A DNA stretch of 44,903 nt from a virus: the IMG/VR virus record IMGVR_UViG_3300046459_000406, positions 1 to 44,903 of that record; one strand, given 5' to 3'. Under the pieces are notes generated by a model. The model searched no databases. It was not told the origin of the DNA and worked only from the letters and a program-made list of their open reading frames with translations. The translations under genes were made by a program, and so were the position numbers. Shown here piece after piece: positions 13,355 to 37,847 of this stretch. Positions within the stretch are counted from its first letter, which is position 1. Every line of letters begins with the position of its first letter.

Positions 13355-13675
13355 ATGCTTCCCGGCCTGATGCCGGTACCGGCCATTCTTGCCATCGGCG
13401 GGCCTGTCAGCACTGGCAACGGCACGCCGATCGGTCTGCTGTTGTCATTGACTTGGGTGCCGCCGACCGGCGGCGGTGTGCCAGACGGTTCACCGATTGG
13501 TCTGCTTTTAGCATTGACGAAAAGCAGCGGCGGTGTGCCAGACGGCTCGTCGATCGGTCTGCTCTTGGCATTAACGAAAGGCAGCGGCGGCAGCATCGGT
13601 GGGGGCGGCAATCTGCTAACGGACGGCTCCGGGATCGTATTAACCGACGACACTGGCAACAACCTTACTACATAA
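13355..13675 (+). CDS. Repetitive small tail-region protein (IGLLLALT repeats)
   Basis: 106 aa, starting at the ATG immediately after the previous stop. Three near-identical units read PIGLLLSLT, PIGLLLALT and SIGLLLALT, each followed by a Gly-rich turn (GGVPDGS), and the C-terminus is GNLLTDGSGIVLTDDTGNNLTT. The nucleotide repeats are close to exact (13430-13580), a sign of recent tandem duplication. The hydrophobic units are too short to be membrane helices and more likely form stacked beta strands. No known family is recognised. Confidence 0.6.
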   Translation: MLPGLMPVPAILAIGGPVSTGNGTPIGLLLSLTWVPPTGGGVPDGSPIGLLLALTKSSGGVPDGSSIGLLLALTKGSGGSIGGGGNLLTDGSGIVLTDDTGNNLTT

Positions 13676-22214: not shown

Positions 22215-22777
22215 ACGAGGACCTGTCGCTATCGCGAGCCGGCGCGAATTTGGTCAAGCATTTCGAGTCGTGCCTGCATCCACGCGGTCCCGATCGCTTT
22301 CAGGCCTATCTTTGCCCGGCCGGTGTCTGGACGATCGGCTGGGGCACCACCACTGAGAACGGCCACAAGATCAAATCCGGCATGATCTGGTCACAGCGCC
22401 AATGCGATGCGGCGTTCCTCAACGACATGAAACATTTCGAAAATGATGTCAGGCGCCTGGTCAAGGTCGACCTGACGCAGTGGCAGTTCGATGCCTGCGT
22501 TTCCTTCACATATAACGTCGGGGCCGGTGCGTTCGGCGGCTCGACCCTGTTGAAGAAGATCAACGCCAAGGATTTCGAGGCTGCGGCACTGGAATTTCAC
22601 AAATGGAATAAGGGCGGCGGCAAGGTCTTGGCCGGACTGGTGCGCCGCCGCGCCAGCGAAAGCCTGCTGTTCCAGAATATTGCCGACAACAATTACGACG
22701 GCAAACCCGACAAGGTCATCGTGCCGCTCGGCGATGCAATGCCGCAGGATGTCGATGAACCGACCAGGGCGGCTTAA
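22211..22777 (+). CDS. Endolysin, glycoside hydrolase family 24 lysozyme
   Basis: 188 aa, ATGA-coupled to the holin-like gene. Cleaves the glycan strands of peptidoglycan. The family signature is present: Glu19 in VKHFES, Cys35 in AYLCPAGVW and Thr41 in TIGWGTT, i.e. the E-(D/C)-5-T catalytic triad in its Cys version, with an insertion of about 7 residues between Glu and Cys. Also typical are QWQFDACVSFTYNVGAGAF and GLVRRRASESLLF. No signal peptide or anchor is seen, so release through the holin is expected. The C-terminal 30 residues are a polar extension. Its stop overlaps that of the convergent gene. Confidence 0.9.
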   Translation: MNEDLSLSRAGANLVKHFESCLHPRGPDRFQAYLCPAGVWTIGWGTTTENGHKIKSGMIWSQRQCDAAFLNDMKHFENDVRRLVKVDLTQWQFDACVSFTYNVGAGAFGGSTLLKKINAKDFEAAALEFHKWNKGGGKVLAGLVRRRASESLLFQNIADNNYDGKPDKVIVPLGDAMPQDVDEPTRAA

Positions 22778-23409
22778 TTTCGCCTCCTGCGCCACCACGC
22801 CAACAGACCACCGGCTGCAATCACGAGGCCCGGCAGTCCTGCGCCTACGATGGGAGCGGGAACCCCTGCAAACACGAAACTACCGGCGGTAGTTGTGCAG
22901 CTACAGTCGCCGCCGCCGCCAATTTGAAATGCGCCATTTGGGGCCAGCGAGTTGCCGCTGAATCCAACACTGGTAGAGATATTATCAATTCCGTTGTTCG
23001 ACTGCGTTTGCTGAATGTTGAGGCCAAAGGCGTTATTGCCGAGATGGACTTCACCGTATAGGAAATTGCCATAGTTGCCGAAGTCATAGCTAAGGCCGTT
23101 AATGGTCAAGACCACGTCGATAACGGGGTTGGGTAGCGGAAAGCTTCCGCCGCCTTCGCCGATACATTCACAATTGCTGGCGAGGGTCCAAGTGACGGTA
23201 AATGGATCACCGACGATACTGGCACCGTGTGGGCCAAAATAGCCGCCTGCGTCAATACCGTAAGTCCCGCCGCTGACGCTTCTTCCACCTAGCGGGCCAA
23301 TGACGCCGCTGACGACATAAGTGAAGGCATCTGCATTTGCGGGCAGTGCACTGATAGCAGATAGCGCAAACGCTACGGCCGCACCGAAAAGTTTTGTTCT
23401 GATCGACAT
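22774..23409 (-). CDS. Exported PEP-CTERM-like cargo protein 1
   Basis: 211 aa. The start is placed at ATG 23409, which gives a clean signal peptide (MSIRTKLFGAAVAFALSAIS then ALPANA); a Met 10 codons earlier would bury it. The mature part is Gly-rich and beta-like with one CEC and one CSC pair. The C-terminus has the tripartite sorting layout: VPAPIVGAGLPGL, a hydrophobic stretch (VIAAGGLLAWW) and an Arg cluster (RRRRN). The same 13-residue motif ends the protein at 37074 with different codons. Such tails are cut by exosortase-type enzymes or anchor proteins in the envelope. AGGA-N4-TCCT sites lie 54-77 bases upstream. It is probably a lysogen- or infection-expressed envelope protein; the function is unknown. 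Confidence 0.75.
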   Translation of the reverse strand: MSIRTKLFGAAVAFALSAISALPANADAFTYVVSGVIGPLGGRSVSGGTYGIDAGGYFGPHGASIVGDPFTVTWTLASNCECIGEGGGSFPLPNPVIDVVLTINGLSYDFGNYGNFLYGEVHLGNNAFGLNIQQTQSNNGIDNISTSVGFSGNSLAPNGAFQIGGGGDCSCTTTAGSFVFAGVPAPIVGAGLPGLVIAAGGLLAWWRRRRN

Positions 23410-23462
23410 TCCCGACCCCTGTTTAAGTCCTTTAGCCACAGCTTCAGTCCTACAGGGTTTTA

Positions 23463-24780: not shown

Positions 24781-24971
24781 AGGACCACCTCCTCGTCATC
24801 AGGGATTTCGGCCGGTATGGAGGGCGGCGAGGGCGCAATGCGGATCAGAATGACCGACTGTCCCGCCACCACGCGGACCTCGACCTCGGCGGCGCCGGCC
24901 TGCTTGGCGGCACGAATGGCGCGCGCCACATCAGCCTGGGTTATGGTTGCGGCGCGGCGGGACATACACAC
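24777..24971 (-). CDS. Small protein preceding integrase, candidate directionality factor
   Basis: 64 aa, ATGA-coupled to the integrase. The N-terminus MSRRAATITQADVARAIRAAKQAG is a helix followed by strands (EVEVRVVAGQSVILIRIAPS), a type of small protein I have often seen directly before integrases in rhizobial prophages and islands. Position and size suggest an excisionase-like or integrase accessory role, but there is no canonical winged-helix motif. The start could be Met 24971 or the Met two codons on. Function inferred from context only. Confidence 0.65.
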   Translation of the reverse strand: MCMSRRAATITQADVARAIRAAKQAGAAEVEVRVVAGQSVILIRIAPSPPSIPAEIPDDEEVVL

Positions 24972-24978
24972 ACCTGAA

Positions 24979-25491
24979 TTACTCCGTAGCCTTCCTGCGT
25001 GGCGTCAACGAAAACGCCCACTCCAAAATATTGAAGCTCGGCAGATCGTTCGACGTGCCTCGAGCAACCTTTTCAAGATGTCGCCAGGTCGGCTTGGACA
25101 ACGACTGCAGCGCCAACTGCTGCTGAATTGAATTGACCGAAAACCGTGCCTGTCCATCGATGGTCAAGTTGTTGATCTCGACAATGGCTGACTCATCGCC
25201 GCCACGATCGAGTTTGCGGCGGGCGCCATTCAGCCACCAGCTTGGCAGGCGATCGGCAATCTTCTGATCGGTGAGACGTTCAATACCAATGCCGGGCCTT
25301 ACTGTAACCCAAACCTGAGCGTGATCGCGTCTGAGAATAGTTCGGGCGTAACGCAAGTGATGGTCTTTTGGCCCAACCTTGTATTCTGTGGCCGCAGTGA
25401 TTTGCGCATAGGTCAGTTGCTGACCTTTGTCATGAGCGCGCAAATATTGCATGAGGCGATCGGTGATAACAGATCGTTCAAATAGAGCCAT
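24979..25491 (-). CDS. Hypothetical protein of the leftward early operon
   Basis: 170 aa. The N-terminal 70 residues look helical with a possible winged-helix layout (VITDRLMQYLRAHDKGQQLTYAQI ... YARTILRRDHAQVWVTV), which could bind nucleic acid. The rest is mixed, with SWWLNGARRKLDRGG and QQLALQSLSKPTWRHLE. A TATAAT (25505-25510, minus strand) lies 14 bases before the ATG, so besides read-through it might have its own promoter, giving a very short leader. No family recognised with confidence. Confidence 0.65.
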   Translation of the reverse strand: MALFERSVITDRLMQYLRAHDKGQQLTYAQITAATEYKVGPKDHHLRYARTILRRDHAQVWVTVRPGIGIERLTDQKIADRLPSWWLNGARRKLDRGGDESAIVEINNLTIDGQARFSVNSIQQQLALQSLSKPTWRHLEKVARGTSNDLPSFNILEWAFSLTPRRKATE

Positions 25492-25505
25492 TGGTCAAAT
25501 TCCGA

Positions 25506-25829
25506 TTATAGCGTTGCGTAGCGTTGCGGGGCGCCGCGCTGCCGGGCGACGAGGCGTGCTGCGGAGCGAAGCGTTGCGGCGCGTTGTGTAGCGATGCGTG
25601 GCGCGAAGTAGCGAGGCGTCGCGGCGCAATGGCAAATGACGTTGCGTGGCGTTGTGAAGCGCGGAGGAGCGGCGTGTCGTGGAGCGTGGCGTCGCGCGGT
25701 GGAGCGGAGCGCTGCGGTGCGGCGTAAAGCGAGACGTTGCGTTGTGTTGCGGTGCGGAGTGGTGAGTTGCAGTGCGATGCGCGGCGCAGTGCTGCGACGT
25801 GCTGCGACGAGGTGCGGAGCGGCGGTCAT
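25506..25829 (-). CDS. Possible repeat-encoded basic peptide
   Basis: 107 aa (Arg, Thr, Ala, Pro and His-rich; begins MTAAPHLVAARRSTAPR). ATG 25829 overlaps the stop of the 195-aa gene and has GGAGG 11 bases upstream, as in other coupled genes of this operon. But the DNA is a degenerate 5-bp repeat, and other frames on both strands are also open, so openness here is no proof of coding. Treat it as an alternative reading of the repeat. Confidence 0.25.
   Translation of the reverse strand: MTAAPHLVAARRSTAPRIALQLTTPHRNTTQRLALRRTAALRSTARRHAPRHAAPPRFTTPRNVICHCAATPRYFAPRIATQRAATLRSAARLVARQRGAPQRYATL
25511..25825. repeat. Degenerate pentanucleotide array (GCGNN)n
   Basis: About 63 consecutive 5-base units fill the gap between two leftward genes. 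From 25511 to about 25625 most units read GCGNN (for example GCGTT GCGTA GCGTT GCGGG). From about 25641 to 25825 the phase shifts and units read GNNGC. On the minus (transcribed) strand this is a GCNNC-type repeat. The last two bases of each unit vary freely, so it is not a recent exact microsatellite. No terminator, tRNA or protein family explains it. The 334 bases between the flanking genes hold nothing else obvious except TATAAT at 25505-25510. Confidence 0.9.
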
Positions 25830-26413
25830 AAATTAAAATCCTCCCATTCAAATTTTGTTACACGAAAGCGGCCATTAGTGCCGCCTTTCTCGGCACGAAA
25901 CCGGCCGATCCCAACAATTATTCCCATCGCTTTGGCGTGGGTCTCAAAGACCTCTCTTGTGATGATGTCATCAGTAATCAGATAAACAAACGTGGCATGA
26001 TATTTTGGGATCGATGGGAAGCGCCGTGTCACGCGCTTGCCTGATCCGCGGACACCATCGGCATTGGCCTGGATGGTCACCTTATCAGCGTCAGCCGGCT
26101 TGATTGCTTTGCCGTTCGCGATCGGTGCATCAGCTTCTGCAATCACACCTGACGTAAAAAAATTCTTATAGGTTGCACCCCGCCGGCCCTGAACCTTGAG
26201 GCCAAGTTTCTGTGCGGCGTTGTCGATGCACTGCTTCTGTGCCATGGCCGGAATGCACACAACACCCTCACTGTTGACCGTACATTTCTGGCGCCATGTA
26301 CGTTCGTCATAATCATCATGGCTTTCACGATCATGCATTTCAGCATCGTGTTTTGCACTTTGCGAATATGGCGAGCCAGGAATGTTTTCGATGAATACCT
26401 GCACACGTTTCAC
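25826..26413 (-). CDS. Conserved phage protein of unknown function
   Basis: 195 aa, GTG start at 26413 behind GGAGG (7 bases), 2 bases after the preceding stop. Recognisable phage-type blocks are SPYSQSAKHDAEMHDRESHDDYDERTWRQ (quoted only as start SPYSQS and end DDYDERTW), VVCIPAMAQKQCIDNAAQKLG, GSGKRVTRRFPSIP, DDIITREVFETHAKAMGIIVGIGRF and the final GTNGRFRV. I have met this set of motifs in small proteins of early regions of many proteobacterial phages, but no activity is known to me. Early operon position suggests a role in DNA metabolism or host takeover. Confidence 0.7.
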   Translation of the reverse strand: MKRVQVFIENIPGSPYSQSAKHDAEMHDRESHDDYDERTWRQKCTVNSEGVVCIPAMAQKQCIDNAAQKLGLKVQGRRGATYKNFFTSGVIAEADAPIANGKAIKPADADKVTIQANADGVRGSGKRVTRRFPSIPKYHATFVYLITDDIITREVFETHAKAMGIIVGIGRFRAEKGGTNGRFRVTKFEWEDFNL

Positions 26414-26415
26414 GT

Positions 26416-26595
26416 TTAATCCTCCCTTGTTATCTTGATGATATCGACATCAACGGTATCGCCGGCCAATTCGTCGGCAATGATGTTCCAATTTTCAGCC
26501 TCGTGACGGGCCTCGTCTTTGGACGCAGCCTCCACGGCAATAGTGAGAAAACGCACAACCTGTATCTCGACCGACCACCGTGGAAGCGCGCACAT
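26416..26595 (-). CDS. Small acidic early protein
   Basis: 59 aa, start ATG 26595 overlapping the upstream stop (TGATG). The sequence (MCALPRWSVEIQVVRFLTIA ... VEAASKDEARHEAENWNIIA ... DTVDVDIIKITRED) has a beta-alpha-beta look with a helix rich in Glu/Ala, resembling small single-domain phage proteins such as DpnD/PcfM-like ones. It is part of the gap-free leftward operon and its end carries the ribosome site of the next gene. Function is unknown. Confidence 0.65.
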   Translation of the reverse strand: MCALPRWSVEIQVVRFLTIAVEAASKDEARHEAENWNIIADELAGDTVDVDIIKITRED

Positions 26596-28601: not shown

Positions 28602-29141
28602 ATGACAGCGCAATCGGATCGTTTTGCCCGGAGCTCTGCGGTTGCACCCCCTGTACCCGCGGATGCGGAGGGTGTCGCACTGTCCTCCCCGGTTCAGGGC
28701 GGCACCCGACGCACCCAACAACGGACCCCGGTCGAGCAGCGTCTCATTGAATTGCATGCTCTGCACGGCGCTGCCGAATTGTCATTCGCGGAGATTGCGT
28801 GGCGGTTGAACGACGAGTTCAACATGCAGATGAGCCGCAACGCGGTGATCGGCCGGGTTCACCGCATGCAGTTGCCGCCACGGGTCACATTCAAGCGCGG
28901 TGGCCGGCCGGTTAAAATCGCAGCCCCCAAAAAACCGCTGATCGTCAAGCAAAAACCCAAGCCAGCGGCGCTGGCACTACCGCGCAATCTGCCACTGCTG
29001 AAACTCAAGCAACACGACTGCCGCTACGCCACGGTCGGCGATGAGGCGCCATACCTGTTCTGCGCCCAGGCAACCGTTGAAAACAGTTCGTGGTGCGCCG
29101 TGCATTTCAAGGCCGTGCATAACGACGTGAGGTTGCTGTGA
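28602..29141 (+). CDS. GcrA-like regulator
   Basis: 179 aa. After a 40-residue disordered start, residues 43-94 give the GcrA DNA-binding domain (LSFAEIAWRLND ... MSRNAVIGRVHRMQLPPR). A basic linker follows, then the C-terminal module with Cys140, Cys154, Cys165 and His168 (DCRYATVGDEAPYLFCAQA, SSWCAVHF). In Caulobacter and relatives GcrA binds sigma-70 and stimulates promoters carrying methylated GANTC. A phage copy as the second rightward early gene could steer host RNA polymerase to phage promoters or disturb the cell cycle. The N-terminal tryptophan of classical GcrA is missing and the linker is longer, so function is inferred. Confidence 0.75.
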   Translation: MTAQSDRFARSSAVAPPVPADAEGVALSSPVQGGTRRTQQRTPVEQRLIELHALHGAAELSFAEIAWRLNDEFNMQMSRNAVIGRVHRMQLPPRVTFKRGGRPVKIAAPKKPLIVKQKPKPAALALPRNLPLLKLKQHDCRYATVGDEAPYLFCAQATVENSSWCAVHFKAVHNDVRLL

Positions 29142-37073: not shown

Positions 37074-37847
37074 ATGAAACGTCTAGTGATAGCGGCAATT
37101 CTTTGCATTGCCGCAACGTCGGCCAACGCCGACGTTATACTTGGCGGCCAGACTTGGACCGGCGCAGGCAGCGAGACCATCAACTTGGTGACCGGCGCAG
37201 TCGGCAACCAGCCAAACGATGCGCCTTGTCTGATCTGCGGCGCTAACCAGCCGCAACAACCCGCTGGCTTTGGCTACAATGACTTCAGCAGCGGCGGCAA
37301 CATCACTTCGATCACCGCCTTTAGCGATCAGGGCAACGGCGGTCGCAATACGTTGCTCGACAACACGTTCAACAACACTTTGACCGGCGGCTATCAGATC
37401 GGCGACGGCTCGCTGTTCAAAGCATTCTTGCTGGCGCACGGCGACACCAACGCCGATCTCGCCTTCAATATCGGCGTCGATGTCAACGACACCAGTCAGG
37501 CGCAGACATTGAACAGTTTCTTCCTTCTGGATCTGACCACGCACACGGTGCTGGCGTCGTATCTGTGCATCGTTAGCTGCACCGTGCCGTCGCTCCACAA
37601 CGGCACCGGCTTTCCCGACTACACGCTGACCGGGTTCTCGCTCAACGGTGTCAATCCAGGCGACGAGATCATCTTTGCCGCCCACATGACCGGGCTGAAC
37701 GATGGCCCCGACAGCTTCTTCCTTGAGCCTGCTGCCGCCGCTGTCCCCGCTCCGATCGTTGGTGCCGGCTTGCCTGGCTTGCTGGGCGGCTTGTTCGCCC
37801 TGGCCGGTCTGGCTTGGCGGCGGCGATCAAGTTTCAGCATCCGCTGA
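37074..37847 (+). CDS. Exported PEP-CTERM-like cargo protein 2
   Basis: 257 aa; CGGAGA lies 8 bases before the ATG. The signal peptide is clear (MKRLVIAAILCIAATSANAD). The mature part is rich in Asn, Asp, Gly and Thr (FGYNDFSSGGNITSITAFSD, FNIGVDVNDTSQAQTLNSFF) and holds a CLIC and a CIVSC pair. The C-terminus is VPAPIVGAGLPGL, a hydrophobic segment (LGGLFALAGLAW) and RRRSSFSIR. The 13-residue motif is identical to that of the protein at 22774, although the DNA differs and the rest of the proteins are unrelated by eye. An operator and promoter-like site stand upstream, so it is probably an independent cargo transcript. Envelope-anchored function, unknown. Confidence 0.75.
   Translation: MKRLVIAAILCIAATSANADVILGGQTWTGAGSETINLVTGAVGNQPNDAPCLICGANQPQQPAGFGYNDFSSGGNITSITAFSDQGNGGRNTLLDNTFNNTLTGGYQIGDGSLFKAFLLAHGDTNADLAFNIGVDVNDTSQAQTLNSFFLLDLTTHTVLASYLCIVSCTVPSLHNGTGFPDYTLTGFSLNGVNPGDEIIFAAHMTGLNDGPDSFFLEPAAAAVPAPIVGAGLPGLLGGLFALAGLAWRRRSSFSIR

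What the first reader, a model, noticed from the sequence alone, without database searches (positions are those of the whole stretch)
25511..25825. 315-bp degenerate pentanucleotide array inside the early operon
About 63 units of GCGNN (shifting to GNNGC after about 25641) fill the space between two leftward genes. Positions within the unit are unequal: GC(G) is kept and the other bases vary. Because 5 is not a multiple of 3, several frames are open, so it might encode a frameshift-tolerant Arg/Thr/Ala-rich peptide (ATG 25829 is coupled to the upstream stop), or act as DNA or RNA structure. I know no described feature of this kind in phages.
Basis: seen in the sequence. Interest (0 to 1): 0.8.

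Follow-up and report, generated by a model that had tools for sequence, protein, structure and literature searches.

The report
Phage RNA-guide array (VIPR-type system)
The odd five-letter repeat is best read as a set of guide RNAs sitting next to a small CRISPR-related (RAMP) protein gene in a prophage-like genome; read with the recently published 'skip every third base' code, two of its guides point at genes of related, competing phages.

Summary
The array is real: window 25509-25821 (minus strand), period-5 autocorrelation 0.56 against 0.30±0.03 in shuffles, and unique in the window. It is most likely not a peptide gene. It reads as two or three VIPR guide RNAs (vrRNAs), a kind described in a 2026 preprint (PMC13142463).

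The upstream neighbour (25826-26413, minus) is a RAMP protein. Its model matches only CRISPR effector chains among the 50 listed PDB hits, and its relatives hit PHROG 4652, the family of the reference Vipr of phage SUSP1. All 25 virus contigs found through this gene or its downstream neighbour carry C-D-C-NN arrays (98 arrays, 3,005 units). None were found in the other phage contigs scanned.

Read by the published rule (NN pairs, one base skipped), guide 1 matches 25/28 bases in a gene of a VIPR-less sister phage, and guide 2 matches 26/28 in the DUF5681 gene upstream of terL in related phages. None of about 10,000 unit shuffles per guide reached these scores. The skipped base is the wobble position, and the phage's own genome matches at most 20/28.

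The 'phase shift' near 25641 is a short separator between guides. Differences from SUSP1: a C-rich scaffold, a repeat-unit handle and an unrelated accessory gene. Expression, binding and effect on phages are inferred.

The parts
25826..26413 (-). Vipr: single-RRM RAMP protein, 195 aa, GTG start, glycine-rich loop GIGRFRAEKGGTNGRF near the C-terminus
   Evidence: AlphaFold2 model from 14 homologues: mean pLDDT 84, pTM 0.78. Foldseek against PDB: all 50 listed hits are CRISPR effector chains (Cas7-family RAMPs where named), best E 9e-6. phrog_4652 hit: window E 4e-4, relatives down to 9e-9, SUSP1 Vipr 8e-96.
25752..25821 (-). vrRNA1 guide, 14 units; NN = TC AC GT AG GT AG TG CG AT AC AA AC TC AC
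   Evidence: 25/28 match with 1-nt skip to a small gene in sister phage L105:10021+; best in the window's own genome 20/28; 0 of 10,278 shuffles reach 25
25737..25751 (-). vrRNA1 handle, three units CGCAA CACAA CGCAA, followed by CGT
   Evidence: the target match ends exactly here; the same ending recurs in relatives
25727..25736 (-). two units (CGTCT CGCTT) between vrRNA1 handle and vrRNA2 guide that do not match the target; probable leader or processing boundary
   Evidence: inferred from the limits of the target match
25657..25726 (-). vrRNA2 guide, 14 units; NN = GC AC AG TC TC CG GA CA TC GA GC TC CG TT
   Evidence: 26/28 match with 1-nt skip to the DUF5681 gene just upstream of terL in L025, L048 and L053, weaker in about 30 further related contigs; 0 of 9,713 shuffles reach 26
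25642..25656 (-). vrRNA2 handle, CACAA CGCCA CGCAA
   Evidence: the target match ends here
25629..25641 (-). separator CGTCATTTGCCAT (the 'phase shift'), between vrRNA2 and vrRNA3
   Evidence: similar T-rich separators follow CGCAA handles in L149, L013, L140 and L008
25509..25628 (-). vrRNA3 (possibly two short guides), 24 units, ending CGCAA CGCTA CGCAA CGCTA; likely guide 25529-25598
   Evidence: period-5 array; no target found in the sequences held
24979..25491 (-). candidate vap (accessory) gene, 170 aa, directly downstream of the vipr-proximal array in relatives
   Evidence: conserved in 15 loci at 45-55% identity to the window protein; same order in relatives; no match in Pfam, PHROGs, NCBIfam or PADLOC and none to SUSP1 vap1
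24967..26443 (.). whole VIPR cassette, absent from the sister phage (empty site between homologous flanks)
   Evidence: L105 9887 aligns to window 24966 and L105 9937 aligns to window 26444

Best explanation
The region is a phage-encoded VIPR system. A small RAMP protein (Vipr, 25826-26413) is followed on the same strand by an array of two or three vrRNAs and an accessory gene (vap, 24979-25491). Each vrRNA is about 14 pentanucleotide units C-D-C-N-N followed by a three-unit handle (CGCAA-CGCNN-CGCAA). By analogy with SUSP1, Vipr subunits hold the fixed three bases of each unit and expose the two free bases. The free bases together pair with double-stranded DNA in the pattern NNxNNx..., the unpaired base falling on codon wobble positions. 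The prophage would use this to silence genes of competing related phages: guide 2 the DUF5681 gene before terL, guide 1 a small gene of a sister phage that lacks the cassette. Its own copy differs enough to escape. Shown here: array, RAMP fold, family link, genomic association, code and targets, empty site in the sister. Inferred: transcription and processing, RNP formation, repression as the outcome, the role of vap.
For: (1) Array statistics. (2) Neighbouring protein is a RAMP: model pLDDT 84, 91 PDB matches at E<=1e-3 with all 50 listed from CRISPR effector complexes; viral library hits include a protein named 'Cas system-associated RAMP superfamily'. (3) Same PHROG as SUSP1 Vipr: SUSP1 8e-96, our family 9e-9 to 4e-4; hhalign to SUSP1 Vipr E 5e-4. 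(4) All 25 contigs carry arrays: 98 arrays, 3,005 units, position 1 C 96%, position 2 G 77/T 12/A 10%, position 3 C 95%, positions 4-5 free; no arrays in the scanned loci without the system. (5) Arrays lie on the vipr strand, as in SUSP1. (6) Skip rule: in 2.4 Mb of related phage DNA the best array score is 22 with skip 1, 17/16/16 with skips 0/2/3, at most 19 in 14 whole-set shuffles; the window array alone scores 22 against at most 18 in 1,737 shuffles. (7) Guide 1 25/28 and guide 2 26/28, p<1e-4 each against unit shuffles; the two rank first among 1,700 14-unit stretches. (8) Skipped base is the wobble position of the target gene for window guides 1 and 2 and for L014 to vap, L133 to vipr, L020 to terL and L147 to a long terminase-like gene. 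(9) Matches of both window guides end at the CGCAA handle. (10) Sister phage lacks the cassette and is the best guide-1 target.
Against: No expression or binding data. The fixed part is C-D-C, not G-G-Y as in SUSP1, and the structured 3' tail described there is not evident. The window's Vipr alone hits the PHROG only weakly (4e-4), and sequence similarity to SUSP1 Vipr is limited to about 60 residues around the glycine-rich loop. The accessory gene is unrelated to SUSP1 vap1. No perfect 28/28 target exists in IMG/VR for guide 2, and no target was found for vrRNA3. The test set was chosen around relatives of the window phage and the 14-unit limits were set after seeing the matches; the shuffles control for composition but not for all coding-sequence structure.
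Confidence: 0.93

Rival explanations
1. The array encodes a frameshift-tolerant Arg/Thr/Ala-rich peptide (ATG 25829, translationally coupled to the vipr stop).
For: A 107-aa frame is open from ATG 25829, overlapping the stop of the upstream gene.
Against: C-D-C-N-N cannot contain a sense stop in any frame, so openness carries no information. Arrays contain separators and phase shifts, lie also upstream of vipr and after vap, and some are on the opposite strand. NN content is replaced between relatives whose genes are 84-90% identical.
Confidence: 0.02
2. A degenerate microsatellite or mutational relic with no function.
For: Short period and degenerate units.
Against: Two scaffold positions are 95-96% kept while NN is free over 3,005 units, which slippage followed by random decay would not give. 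Strict association with one protein family, position-specific handles, and skip-1 matches to rival genes in wobble phase.
Confidence: 0.02
3. A DNA-level element: an array of protein-binding sites (for example for vap or Vipr as DNA-binding proteins), or a replication/partition site.
For: Half-helical-turn period and G+C-rich fixed positions; repeated arrays near the genes in relatives.
Against: Would not predict conserved handles, strand consistency with vipr, free NN pairs, or gapped matches to genes of other phages.
Confidence: 0.02
4. A Vipr-like RNP that uses the same code for a different outcome, such as target cleavage, RNA targeting, or regulation of the phage's own homologous gene beside the cassette.
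For: vap function unknown; guide 1 matches the window's own homologous gene 20/28, the best self match; both window guides carry the sequence of the strand antisense to the target gene, so they could also pair with mRNA.
Against: No nuclease family found for vap; the self match has 8 mismatches against 3 in the sister; the published system represses by DNA binding from either strand (PMC13142463).
Confidence: 0.15

Closest known systems
VIPR, type II, of Escherichia phage SUSP1 and a Pseudomonas fulva prophage (PMC13142463)
   Same: Phage/prophage setting; one small RAMP protein of the same PHROG (4652); pentanucleotide arrays on the vipr strand with three fixed and two free bases; roughly 85-100-nt units of 9-16 repeats plus a 3' part; several vrRNAs per locus; 1-nt-skip matches with wobble positions skipped; targets in related phages and in other VIPR systems; an accessory gene beside vipr.
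   Different: Fixed bases are C-D-C (usually CGC), not GGY; the 3' part looks like repeat-unit handles (CGCAA-CGCNN-CGCAA) plus a short T-rich separator rather than a pseudoknotted tail; the accessory gene is unrelated to vap1; a vrRNA array lies between vipr and vap.
Class 1 CRISPR effector RAMPs (Cas7: Csm3, Cmr4, type VII Cas7)
   Same: Predicted fold with glycine-rich loop; presumed backbone of an RNA-guided complex.
   Different: No CRISPR repeats/spacers or cas genes were noticed around the locus; guide information is non-contiguous.
CRISPR arrays and other guide-RNA systems (omega RNAs, bridge RNAs)
   Same: Programmable RNA next to its protein gene.
   Different: Those guides pair contiguously; here the information lies in gapped dinucleotides.

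Membership tests
VIPR | Vipr: small (~20 kDa) single-RRM RAMP protein with glycine-rich loop | tested here: met
   195 aa; RAMP fold; glycine-rich loop conserved in 14 homologues
VIPR | Homology of the protein to the reference Vipr (SUSP1) | tested here: met
   Same PHROG 4652: SUSP1 8e-96, relatives 9e-9 to 1e-6, window protein 4e-4; hhalign E 5e-4, 59 columns
VIPR | vrRNA of tandem pentanucleotides with fixed GGY (or related consensus) and hypervariable NN | tested here: met
   C-D-C-NN over 3,005 units; literal GGY is not met; the preprint allows 'a related consensus' but its supplement could not be read
VIPR | 9-16 units per vrRNA followed by an invariant 3' tail | tested here: inconclusive
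   14 units + 3-unit handle for guides 1 and 2; recurring separators in relatives; no structured tail identified, no RNA data
VIPR | 1-nt-skip targeting, skipped base at wobble position | tested here: met
   (computational only)
VIPR | Targets in competing phages or other VIPR systems | tested here: met
   Window guides to sister/related phages; L014 to a vap gene, L133 to a vipr gene
VIPR | Accessory vap gene of a known vap family | tested here: inconclusive
   Conserved neighbour in 15 loci; no match to SUSP1 vap1; vap2-6 sequences not available
VIPR | vrRNA is expressed, binds Vipr, represses target | not testable with these tools
   needs sRNA-seq, pull-down, reporter assay
CRISPR-Cas | CRISPR repeat-spacer array and cas operon | tested here: not met
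   Array units are 5 bp with only 2 free bases; none of the flanking proteins scanned matched a Cas family

The most novel reading that the evidence does not exclude
This is a separate VIPR lineage with its own scaffold code (C-D-C instead of G-G-Y), handles built from repeat units instead of a folded tail, and an undescribed accessory protein. It is carried as a cassette by some sister phages and not others, and aims at siblings that lack it.
Probability: 0.5. Interest if true: 0.82.

Novelty: new variant of a known kind. Interest (0 to 1): 0.74.

Why it matters
VIPR is reported as a relative, possibly an ancestor, of CRISPR effectors that reads DNA through a gapped code. This locus and its 24 relatives give independent computational support for that code in a lineage with a different scaffold. 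They also show a sharply resolved case, with a cassette-carrying phage, a cassette-free sister with the empty site, and a guide that fits the sister better than the carrier. Anatomical limits (14 units plus a 3-unit handle) can be read from target matches alone, and the changed scaffold bases make it testable how RAMP subunits recognise the fixed part of the repeat.

Tried and rejected
Peptide reading: rejected (stop-free by construction). Rfam: nothing relevant in the array or separators. Pfam, NCBIfam, PADLOC: no family for Vipr or vap. Genome-contig scans with the protein and with the profile found no relative, so no host was identified. Phage collection: only a weak hit in LESphi2 for Vipr and none for vap. 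Exact 28-base gapped pattern of guide 2 in IMG/VR: no perfect hit. Apparent strong target hits from L021:7812, L016:10656 and L149:9624 were discarded: these are wrong-phase readings of arrays, dominated by repeated GC/CG pairs. Using other base pairs of the unit as a control was uninformative, because the fixed C/G bases match low-complexity DNA. First AlphaFold job with 5 sequences was too poor (pLDDT 60) and was repeated with 14. A general enrichment of near matches inside the first 300 kb was not seen beyond the top few hits.

Full report
OBSERVATION. The period-5 array is real. Autocorrelation at lag 5 is 0.56 over 25509-25827, against 0.30 ± 0.03 in dinucleotide shuffles (z = 9), with peaks at multiples of 5 and no comparable stretch elsewhere in the window. 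On the minus strand, which is the coding strand of both neighbours, the unit is C-D-C-N-N. There are 37 units (25821-25637), a phase break formed by a 13-nt separator (25641-25629), then 24 units (25628-25509).

THE PEPTIDE READING. In a C-D-C-N-N string no triplet in any sense frame can be TAA, TAG or TGA. Simulation gives 0 sense stops and 13.8 antisense stops per 300 bp; the window shows 0 and 8.

THE NEIGHBOUR. A literature search for pentanucleotide repeats in phages returned PMC13142463 (read). It describes VIPR: a small phage RAMP protein (Vipr) with vrRNAs made of 9-16 YNNGG repeats. Their NN pairs recognise DNA with one skipped base per step. The gene directly upstream of our array (25826-26413, 195 aa) has no Pfam, NCBIfam or PADLOC family. 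It ends in a RAMP-like glycine-rich loop. With 14 homologues AlphaFold gives pLDDT 84 and pTM 0.78. Foldseek against the PDB returns CRISPR effector chains (Csm, Cmr, type VII, Cas7-11) for all 50 listed matches, best E 9e-6. In the viral library one of three significant hits is named a Cas-associated RAMP protein. SUSP1's Vipr (ALH47069, identified here from its position between GGTNN arrays) hits phrog_4652 at 8e-96. Our family hits the same PHROG at 9e-9 to 1e-6, the window protein at 4e-4. Direct profile comparison gives E 5e-4 over 59 columns. The family link is therefore supported by sequence and by fold.

RELATIVES. Scans of IMG/VR with the Vipr profile and with the downstream 170-aa protein gave 24 further contigs. 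All carry arrays of the same kind on the vipr strand, with single opposite-strand arrays in L019 and L138: 98 arrays and 3,005 units including the window. Base frequencies are C 96%; G 77, T 12, A 10%; C 95%; then two free positions. Arrays sit before vipr, between vipr and the 170-aa gene, and after that gene. No array was detected in the terminase-related contigs or other loci without the system. Between pairs with vipr 84-90% identical at the DNA level the NN content shares only runs of 2-4 units; one other pair (L021/L128) shares a 20-unit run, showing recent common descent of one guide set.

ANATOMY. Guides end in units CGCAA-CGCNN-CGCAA, often followed by CGT or by a T-rich separator such as CGATTCATTTATGGCATTTC in L149; the window's counterpart is CGTCATTTGCCAT (25641-25629). 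The window holds vrRNA1 (guide 25821-25752, handle 25751-25737), vrRNA2 (guide 25726-25657, handle 25656-25642) and vrRNA3 (25628-25509, perhaps two short guides).

TARGETS. The NN string of every array was compared with related phage DNA, skipping 0, 1, 2 or 3 bases between pairs. Within 2.4 Mb the best score was 22 for skip 1 and 17, 16 and 16 for the other skips; 14 shuffles of the whole set gave at most 19. The top hit is the window's own array: 22 against at most 18 in 1,737 shuffles, and 13, 12 and 13 with other skips. Guide 2 matches 26 of 28 bases on the antisense strand of the DUF5681 gene (PF18932) just before terL in L025, L048 and L053, and less well in about 30 further related contigs. 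The two mismatched pairs are matched in other members of the same target gene (L033, L056). Guide 1 matches 25 of 28 in a small gene of L105. The next best hit is the same gene in L153 (22), and the window's own copy is at 20. None of 10,278 and 9,713 shuffles reached these values. Both matches stop exactly at the handle. In both, and in L014 to vap, L133 to vipr, L020 to terL and L147 to a long terminase-like gene, the skipped base is the third codon position of the target gene. This is the pattern the preprint reports for SUSP1.

SELF AND SISTER. L105 belongs to a sister phage (about 72-97% identical over many segments, mostly 83-92% near the locus). It lacks the cassette: its sequence passes from the equivalent of window 24966 to that of 26444 within 50 bp. 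The gene targeted by guide 1 is the one bordering the empty site. The window phage carries a diverged copy (8 mismatches against 3), which would spare it.

MECHANISM. Most likely the array RNA is transcribed leftward with vipr, cut into vrRNAs, coated by Vipr subunits (one per unit, by analogy with Cas7), and used to bind and silence target genes of related phages in a lysogen. Transcription, processing, stoichiometry, repression and the role of the 170-aa protein are inferred, not shown. The position between integrase and an S24/CI-like repressor fits expression in a prophage but does not prove it.

RELATION TO KNOWN SYSTEMS. It works like VIPR and meets most of the tested defining features; the 3' tail and the vap family are inconclusive. 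It departs in the fixed bases (C-D-C against G-G-Y), the handle (repeat units against a folded tail) and the accessory gene (no similarity to vap1). The preprint names seven types and allows related consensus sequences, but its supplement could not be read here, so this variant may already be among them. I rate it a new variant of a known kind, with that caveat.

Noticed in passing
L218 (OQ594955.1, Pseudomonas phage LESphi2) 638-1692: LESphi2 carries a Vipr (phrog_4652, 9e-66), a vap1-like gene (phrog_5926, 4e-31) and GGCNN arrays upstream: a VIPR locus in a phage of P. aeruginosa LESB58, annotated as hypothetical.
   Followed up: partly
window 22774-23439 (-) and 37074-37847 (+): Two putative exported proteins with C-terminal PAPIVGAGLPGL...WRRR motifs resembling a PEP/VPxP-CTERM sorting signal, unusual in a phage genome and similar to each other at the C-terminus.
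   Followed up: no
window 28602-29141 (+): GcrA cell-cycle regulator homologue (PF07750, E 1e-12) next to the repressor; suggests an alphaproteobacterial host.
   Followed up: no
L133:3677-3761 against L133:3591-3624: A guide matching the conserved glycine-rich-loop codons of vipr itself, including its own (24/28): either aimed at rival VIPRs or self-regulation.
   Followed up: partly
L016:10001-10585: vipr gene interrupted by one TAA stop while arrays and the accessory gene remain.
   Followed up: no
L008:9025-9987: Nearly 1 kb of guide arrays upstream of vipr (174 units) with T-rich separators, the largest set seen.
   Followed up: partly
window 13470-13590: 57-bp tandem repeat, 2.1 copies.
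   Followed up: no
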